Source: Chloroflexota bacterium (GTDB lineage Bacteria; Chloroflexota; Dehalococcoidia; Lucifugimonadales; Lucifugimonadaceae). Taken from it: a stretch of 64,000 bases of DNA. The stretch is taken from positions 88,569 through 152,568 of the forward strand of contig JAQBUH010000003.1 in NCBI GenBank assembly GCA_027624075.1, written 5' to 3'. This document shows positions 9,402 to 10,265 of this stretch, piece by piece. Position 1 is the first letter of the stretch; each line of letters begins with the position of its first letter. A program made the translations under genes and the position numbers. The notes beneath the pieces were generated by a model. It worked only from the letters and a program-made list of their open reading frames with translations, did not search any database and had not been told where the DNA came from.

Positions 9402-10265
9402 TCACGCCTTCTCCCCGGTGGTAATCGGGCAACTGAGATCGTTGCCCCATAGCCGCCACGAACCGTCGAAGTTACGGACAGAGTCAAAGCCAAGCAGCTT
9501 CAGCACCCAGTATCCGTGCGCCGCACGGATGCCGCCCTGTCAATATGTGATCACGTTCTTGTCAGGTGTCACCCCGGCATCAGCCAGCATACGGCGCAAC
9601 TCGTCTGCATGCTTGATGGTTGGCACGTCGCCGCCCGTGTGGAAGTTCAGCCACTCCAGGTGGACCGAGCCTGGTATGTACCCGCCTCGCAGGCCACCTC
9701 GCTTGTTGGACCCGTCCCGCTCACTGTCAGAGCGCACATCGAGGATCACGGTGTCGCGGTCTTCGATCGCCGCCAGCACATCCTCTTTTAAAGCGATGAC
9801 TGCCCGGTTTTCGCGCGGCGTGAACCTGCCCGGTGGCGGTGACGGGACCTCTGTTGTCACGGCGCGGCCTTCTGCAATCCATTTCGGCAACCCGCCGTCA
9901 AGCATCTTTCCCCTGGTGTTGCCGTAGTAGCTGAGCGACCAGAGCAGCCGCAGGGAGTAGAGGCCGCCGTGCGAGTCTGTTGCGACCACGACCGTGTCAT
10001 CGCCGATTCCGAGGCTGGACATCGTCTGTGCGAACTGCTCCGGGCCCTGGATGTGAGTCCTGTCCTCGCCGGAGGTCTTGTAGTAGTTGTCTGCCACGCC
10101 GGCAGCGCCGGGAATGTGCTTCTCGGCGTATTCAGGCGGGTAATTGGTATCGACGATACGCACGTCAGGGTCGCCGAGGTGCTCTGCGAGCCAGTCTGTT
10201 GTCACAAAGAGCGAAGGGTCTGCGTAGCCGCGCTTTTCCGGTGGAGTTATCTGTTGAAGGCTCAT
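9402..10265 (-). CDS. Rhodanese-family sulfurtransferase, candidate selenoprotein (in-frame TGA at 9540-9542 at the catalytic Cys position)
   Basis: The 241-aa ORF ends VITY-TGA; the same frame continues QGGIRAAHGYWVLKLLGFDSVRNFDGSWRLWGNDLSCPITTGEKA to a TGA at 9402-9404. Cys homologs read VITYCQGGxRAAH. Total about 287 aa. Confidence 0.85.
9508..9534 (-). promoter_or_regulatory. Candidate bacterial SECIS stem-loop
   Basis: mRNA sense: UGA CAGGGCGGC AUCCGUGC GGC GCACGGAU ACUG. Perfect 8-bp upper stem, GGC loop starting 18 nt after the UGA, plus a 3-bp lower stem (CGG/CUG) across one C/A mismatch. Confidence 0.75.

What the first reader, a model, noticed from the sequence alone, without database searches (positions are those of the whole stretch)
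9402..10265. Candidate selenocysteine rhodanese: in-frame TGA exactly at the catalytic cysteine
Seen: the minus-strand ORF ends ...GVTPDKNVITY-TGA, and the same frame continues QGGIRAAHGYWVLKLLGFDSVRNFDGSWRLWGNDLSCPITTGEKA-stop (9402). Established: rhodanese/thiosulfate sulfurtransferase active sites read VxTYCxxGxRA, with Cys carrying the persulfide. The TGA replaces precisely that Cys, and rhodanese-like sequence continues beyond it. TGA serves as an ordinary stop elsewhere here, so global recoding is unlikely. Sec-containing rhodanese-related sulfurtransferases have, to my recollection, been reported in metagenomic selenoproteome surveys. Standard callers would yield a 241-aa protein lacking its active site.
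Basis: partly seen in the sequence, partly recalled or inferred. Interest (0 to 1): 0.9.

Follow-up and report, generated by a model that had tools for sequence, protein, structure and literature searches.

The report
Selenocysteine rhodanese in SAR202-type Chloroflexota
A sulfur-transfer enzyme of an uncultured bacterium related to ocean SAR202 carries a stop codon exactly where its catalytic cysteine should be; an RNA hairpin, the decoding genes and dozens of relatives indicate that this codon is read as selenocysteine, so databases cut the enzyme off just before its active site.

Summary
The minus-strand ORF 10265-9402 is a two-domain rhodanese with TGA at residue 242, the only cysteine position conserved throughout the family. 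The genome (89%-complete MAG, Dehalococcoidia, same family as the presumed SAR202 isolate "Candidatus Lucifugimonas marina") has tRNA-Sec, selA, selB and a selD that itself has an in-frame TGA. A hairpin 17 nt after the TGA (8 bp, loop GGC) meets the published bacterial SECIS rules. Of 53 homologues read, 36 have TGA at that site and 17 have TGC/TGT. In TGA forms the hairpin is nearly fixed, even at third codon positions, with compensatory changes; Cys forms, including one from the same genus, have lost it. Sequence after the TGA is under purifying selection. Of 32 genomes with the TGA form, 31 have selA over its cut-off and the last has a fragment. Sec-containing COG2897 rhodaneses have been predicted since the 2005 Sargasso Sea survey, so this is a well-supported new member of a known predicted family. 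Added here: its host group, wide distribution in the order, covariation evidence, natural Sec/Cys pairs and a cultured host for testing. Enzymatic function is inferred.

The parts
9402..10265 (-). Coding sequence of the Sec-containing tandem-domain rhodanese (287 residues, Sec at 242, terminal TGA 9404-9402)
   Evidence: homologues of the same length
9540..9542 (-). In-frame TGA read as selenocysteine at the catalytic cysteine position
   Evidence: TGA in 36 and TGC/TGT in 17 of 53 homologues at this codon; the only Cys column conserved in all rows
9512..9530 (-). Bacterial SECIS hairpin: stem AUCCGUGC/GCACGGAU (9530-9523 with 9519-9512), apical loop GGC (9522-9520), 17 nt after the UGA
   Evidence: rules from PMC13188914
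7997..9181 (-). Downstream neighbour: TlpA/redoxin-like protein with C-terminal Thioredoxin_10 domain (CVNC motif)
   Evidence: neighbour conserved in many relatives
6986..7996 (-). Second downstream neighbour: putative lipoprotein, thioredoxin-like by eye only (no Pfam hit)
10488..11765 (+). hemA (glutamyl-tRNA reductase), divergently transcribed; marks the conserved upstream border

Best explanation
This is a genuine selenoprotein gene. During translation the UGA at 9542-9540 is decoded by SelB with Sec-tRNA(Sec), recruited by the hairpin 9530-9512. The product is a 287-residue two-domain sulfurtransferase with an inactive N-terminal domain and a C-terminal active site VITY-Sec-QGGIRA. The selenolate takes over the role of the rhodanese cysteine: it accepts a sulfane sulfur (as Se-S) from a donor such as thiosulfate and passes it to an acceptor, possibly the thioredoxin-like proteins encoded next door. 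Decoding as Sec is strongly supported by comparison. The sulfurtransferase chemistry is inferred from the family (about 0.7). Donor and acceptor are guesses. The confidence given is for decoding as Sec in a functional rhodanese.
For: Sec machinery in the same genome: tRNA-Sec (69.3 bits, UCA anticodon), selB 331 bits, selA 555 bits, selD 372 bits with its own in-frame TGA in ACAG-U-AGK. TGA/Cys exchange at the catalytic position in 36/17 homologues. SECIS: loop always GGC or GUC; compensatory changes at three stem pairs, no shuffle of 500 reaching the covariation score; wobble-position entropy 0-0.5 bits across the hairpin in Sec forms against 1.5-1.74 bits in Cys forms, and hairpins more stable than synonymous recodings (median fraction 0.008 in Sec forms, 0.48 in Cys forms); published bSECIS rules met by 35/36 Sec and 5/17 Cys sequences, the latter with other hairpins (rules). 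dN/dS after the TGA about 0.07-0.14 within the genus. selA tracks the Sec form (31/32 over cut-off, the other a fragment, against 8/15 Cys-only genomes, Fisher p=0.0007). Conserved gene neighbourhood.
Against: No proteomic, 75Se or enzymatic evidence. The genome is a MAG (89% complete, 60 contigs), so linkage of the sel genes rests on binning, though the relatives agree. The dinucleotide-shuffle test of the 53-nt stretch in the window alone is not significant (z -0.52); the signal comes from synonymous recoding and comparison. One TGA form (G035) failed the rule screen because of a C-A mismatch in the stem. Counts of sequences are not independent events.
Confidence: 0.94

Rival explanations
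1. The gene is decoded as Sec, but the main role is not classical sulfane-sulfur transfer: it could carry selenium towards SelD, or act as a thioredoxin-coupled reductase or peroxidase.
For: Rhodaneses have been discussed as selenium carriers (papers found, abstracts only). Thioredoxin-like genes are next door in many relatives. The loop UQGGIR is neither the textbook TST nor the MST loop (general knowledge).
Against: Fold and active-site loop are those of sulfurtransferases. Cys forms persist in genomes without full-length selA, so the basic function does not need selenium. In streamlined relatives the thioredoxin gene is not found next door.
Confidence: 0.25
2. The TGA is a true stop and the gene is a 241-residue truncated rhodanese or a pseudogene.
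For: Databases annotate it so (P0002, P0106, P0115, P0121, all ending at ITY or IAY).
Against: 36 TGA forms plus five from the phylum scan, dN/dS well below 1 after the TGA, conserved hairpin, and the same position always TGA or Cys.
Confidence: 0.01
3. Sequencing or assembly error of TGC/TGT.
For: MAG data; one base separates TGA from the Cys codons.
Against: The same codon in dozens of separate assemblies; the near-identical protein P0002 ending at the same place stands for 13 contigs.
Confidence: 0.005
4. Genome-wide recoding of TGA, or non-specific read-through as Trp.
For: None found.
Against: The same gene ends in TGA at 9404-9402. Relatives exchange the internal TGA with Cys codons, never Trp. 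A scan of the window gave no other convincing TGA-interrupted gene.
Confidence: 0.005

Closest known systems
Rhodanese-related sulfurtransferase selenoprotein, COG2897/SseA (Sargasso Sea 2005, PMC1088965; GOS 2008, PMC2398784; 'form 4, UxxG' in PMC13188914)
   Same: Tandem rhodanese of the SseA type predicted to have Sec; motif UxxG (here U-Q-G-G); marine; bSECIS predicted.
   Different: Those reports list few sequences (3 in Sargasso; 8 in the cd01449 class in GOS) and, in the passages found, no host group; their sequences could not be aligned here, so identity of the family is likely, not proven.
Cys-containing tandem rhodaneses such as Thermus thermophilus 1uar and Mycobacterium SseA 3hzu
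   Same: Fold family, length, two domains, active-site position.
   Different: Cysteine in place of Sec; distant sequence.
Other Sec rhodaneses: forms 1-3 (PF00581 UxxS, COG0607 UxxG, NF041203 CxU) and TsoB (form 5)
   Same: Rhodanese domain with Sec.
   Different: Separate families in the reviews' tables; NF041203 matches the window protein at only 23.8 bits against a cut-off of 115.
3-mercaptopyruvate sulfurtransferase PRK11493 (NF008557)
   Same: Best NCBIfam match over the whole length (127 bits).
   Different: Below the curated cut-off of 250 bits, so not a member by that test.

Membership tests
Bacterial selenoprotein gene | In-frame TGA with homologous coding sequence beyond it | tested here: met
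Bacterial selenoprotein gene | Sec/Cys pair: TGA aligned with Cys codons in homologues | tested here: met
   36 TGA, 17 TGC/TGT
Bacterial selenoprotein gene | bSECIS: loop 3-9 nt, stem 4-16 bp, G in first two loop positions, 16-37 nt from UGA, MFE at most -7.5 kcal/mol | tested here: met
   Loop GGC, 8 bp, 17 nt, -11.8 kcal/mol for the hairpin (rules)
Bacterial selenoprotein gene | selA, selB, selC, selD in the genome | tested here: met
Bacterial selenoprotein gene | Selenium found in the protein | not testable with these tools
   Needs mass spectrometry or 75Se labelling
Rhodanese domain family PF00581 | Score above gathering threshold | tested here: met
   114 bits against 22.2
Sec rhodanese COG2897 (form 4, UxxG) | Tandem SseA-like rhodanese with U-x-x-G, homologous to the published sequences | tested here: inconclusive
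   Motif and architecture agree; the published sequences (MQG53192.1, MCY3690685.1, AACY01016424) were not available for alignment
3-mercaptopyruvate sulfurtransferase NF008557 | Curated score cut-off 250 | tested here: not met
   127.1 bits
Thiosulfate sulfurtransferase (EC 2.8.1.1) | Thiosulfate:cyanide sulfurtransferase activity | not testable with these tools
   Needs an assay

The most novel reading that the evidence does not exclude
Sec is the old or ancestral state of this rhodanese in the whole SAR202-type order, and Cys forms arose several times by loss of Sec, often together with loss of the Sec machinery in small genomes. A widespread group of marine bacteria would then depend on selenium for a sulfur (or selenium) transfer step that databases hide by truncation.
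Probability: 0.5. Interest if true: 0.6.

Novelty: new member of a known kind. Interest (0 to 1): 0.5.

Why it matters
Public annotation cuts this enzyme off one residue before its active site in a widespread group of Chloroflexota, so surveys of sulfur metabolism miss a catalytic protein and undercount selenium dependence. In the papers found here, Sec rhodaneses of this type are predictions only. The family now has strong RNA-level evidence, a natural Sec/Cys pair within one genus for comparing selenium and sulfur chemistry, and a likely cultured host (Ca. Lucifugimonas marina) in which the Sec peptide can be looked for.

Tried and rejected
Truncation, pseudogene, sequencing error and code change were tested and rejected. 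A plain dinucleotide-shuffle fold test on the window alone was uninformative. A scan of the window for further TGA-interrupted genes gave only candidates that looked like shadow frames of other genes, judged by eye. No relative was found in IMG/VR viral contigs by the peptide scan; plasmid hits are all below 60% identity. The weaker RF01852 hits (about 30-53 bits) were taken as cross-hits of other tRNAs, as in the control genomes, and not counted as tRNA-Sec. A first, strand-blind read of the loci missed half the sites and was replaced.

Full report
Observation. On the minus strand, ATG at 10265 opens a frame of 241 codons ending PDKNVITY. TGA follows at 9542-9540, and the same frame runs on for 45 codons to a second TGA at 9404-9402. 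Read through, the protein is a tandem rhodanese: Pfam Rhodanese 114 bits, and full-length matches to solved rhodaneses, best 1uar at 2.4e-52, with residue 242 opposite the cysteine of the active-site loop. Among 50 aligned homologues, 242 is the only column that is Cys or Sec in every row.

Machinery. The window lies in a 2.3-Mb, 89%-complete assembly. It holds tRNA-Sec (ARAGORN tRNA-SeC with anticodon UCA; Rfam 69.3 bits, cut-off 47), selB (331 bits, cut-off 242), selA (555 bits, cut-off 268) and selD (372 bits, cut-off 125). The selD gene itself has an in-frame TGA, in the context ELAACAG-U-AGKLSQ near its N-terminus, which is where Sec sits in known Sec-containing SelD proteins (general knowledge). 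So this genome probably has at least one other selenoprotein.

Relatives. Of 60 genomes searched (the window's own included), 57 have a homologue. I read the codon in 53 sequences: 36 have TGA and 17 have TGC or TGT; no other codon occurs. Of the five genus-mates that could be read, four have TGA and one (G005) has TGC. A phylum-wide scan for the TGA-plus-hairpin pattern found it in 8 of 301 genomes, with none for the reversed control. Five of the eight had not been read before, two in the same class and three in other classes of the phylum, and all five are rhodaneses with sites such as TYUQGGIRAAHG or close variants. That scan demands one exact pattern, so it is a lower bound.

Hairpin. Nine nt after the UGA starts AUCCGUGC-GGC-GCACGGAU. 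It meets the published bSECIS constraints (PMC13188914): 3-nt loop beginning GG or GU, 4-16 bp stem, 17 nt spacing, MFE -11.8 kcal/mol. In Sec forms the third codon positions inside it are nearly frozen (entropy 0-0.5 bits for the five codons AUC CGU GCG GCG CAC), while those just outside vary (1.1-1.9 bits, apart from the CAG codon directly after the UGA, 0.18). In Cys forms the same five positions vary freely (1.5-1.74 bits). Sec-form hairpins are more stable than nearly all synonymous recodings (median fraction 0.008); Cys forms are not (0.48). Three stem pairs show changes on both sides, none of 500 shuffles reached the covariation score, and slid versions pair far less. In two genomes (G039, G043) the change even alters the protein (RAAH to RSSN) while keeping the stem. 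The same-genus Cys form G005 (79% identical) has CCGCGC-TGC-GCACGG: a mismatch in the stem and the loop G lost. It passes the loose rule screen only through another hairpin.

Selection and phylogeny. Between the window and its genus-mates, dN/dS after the TGA is about 0.07-0.14, low as in the region before it (dS is high and the stretch is short). The Sec/Cys label needs at least six changes on the quick tree, of which well-supported branches force three. The tree is unrooted, has some long branches, and cannot by itself tell gain from loss.

Association. Of 32 genomes with the Sec form, 31 have selA over the cut-off, and the last (G028, 82% complete) has a selA fragment. Of 15 genomes with Cys only, 8 have selA (Fisher p=0.0007, not corrected for kinship). 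Of the seven without a full-length selA, six are small genomes (1.1-1.4 Mb) of three genera; the seventh is G005, 74% complete, which still has tRNA-Sec, so its selA may simply be missing from the assembly.

Context. The gene is divergent from hemA and followed by a TlpA/redoxin-like protein with a Thioredoxin_10 domain, a second putative lipoprotein that looks thioredoxin-like, and a universal stress protein. The order is kept in many Sec and Cys relatives. This suggests, but does not show, that the sulfur carried by Sec is handed to or reduced by a thioredoxin-like partner.

Host. Named records of near relatives are Dehalococcoidia/Chloroflexota MAGs. Relative G017, same family as the window, has a single 3,094,136-base contig. 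A protein listed for a contig of exactly that length is named as a sulfurtransferase of Candidatus Lucifugimonas marina, the cultured SAR202 bacterium (PMC10444878), so G017 is most likely that organism. That annotated protein is 243 aa and ends at ITY, that is, at the TGA. The paper on the cultured strains does not mention selenium or rhodanese.

Known or new. Sec-containing COG2897 rhodanese was predicted in the Sargasso Sea data (3 sequences; PMC1088965) and GOS (PMC2398784), and appears with motif UxxG in a 2026 review (PMC13188914). The window protein agrees in architecture and motif, but I could not align it with those sequences. Two papers in the held library contain both SAR202 and selenocysteine, once each for the latter, and neither is about selenoproteins by title and abstract (not read). 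I therefore class it as a new member of a known predicted family. No curated NCBIfam model reaches its cut-off on it, which fits the truncated annotation in public records.

What is shown and what is inferred. Shown by comparison: the UGA is read as an amino acid exchangeable with Cys, with a SECIS under selection and the Sec machinery present. Inferred: that the amino acid is Sec in the cell (no direct detection), that the enzyme transfers sulfane sulfur through a Se-S intermediate, and any link with the neighbouring thioredoxins.

Noticed in passing
L021 1501-2427 (G000:C31:37820-38746): The genome's selD gene has its own in-frame TGA at the N-terminal active-site position (ACAG-U-AGK), so SelD is probably a selenoprotein too.
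   Followed up: partly
window 1480-4691, minus strand: Two adjacent 535-aa proteins of similar sequence; the one at 3084-4691 is a GMC oxidoreductase by Pfam, the other by resemblance.
   Followed up: no
window 4813-5277, plus strand: OsmC-like protein with an ordinary Cys (GSCTVMT); OsmC-like proteins are another family with predicted Sec members.
   Followed up: no
G011, G012, G014, G021, G030, G032 (loci L045, L054, L039, L046, L042, L041): Small relatives (1.1-1.4 Mb) lack selA over the cut-off and carry the Cys form with A/T-rich codons; looks like loss of Sec use with genome streamlining.
   Followed up: partly
G048 (L066, L078), G056 (L079, L085): Genomes with both a Sec and a Cys rhodanese homologue.
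   Followed up: no
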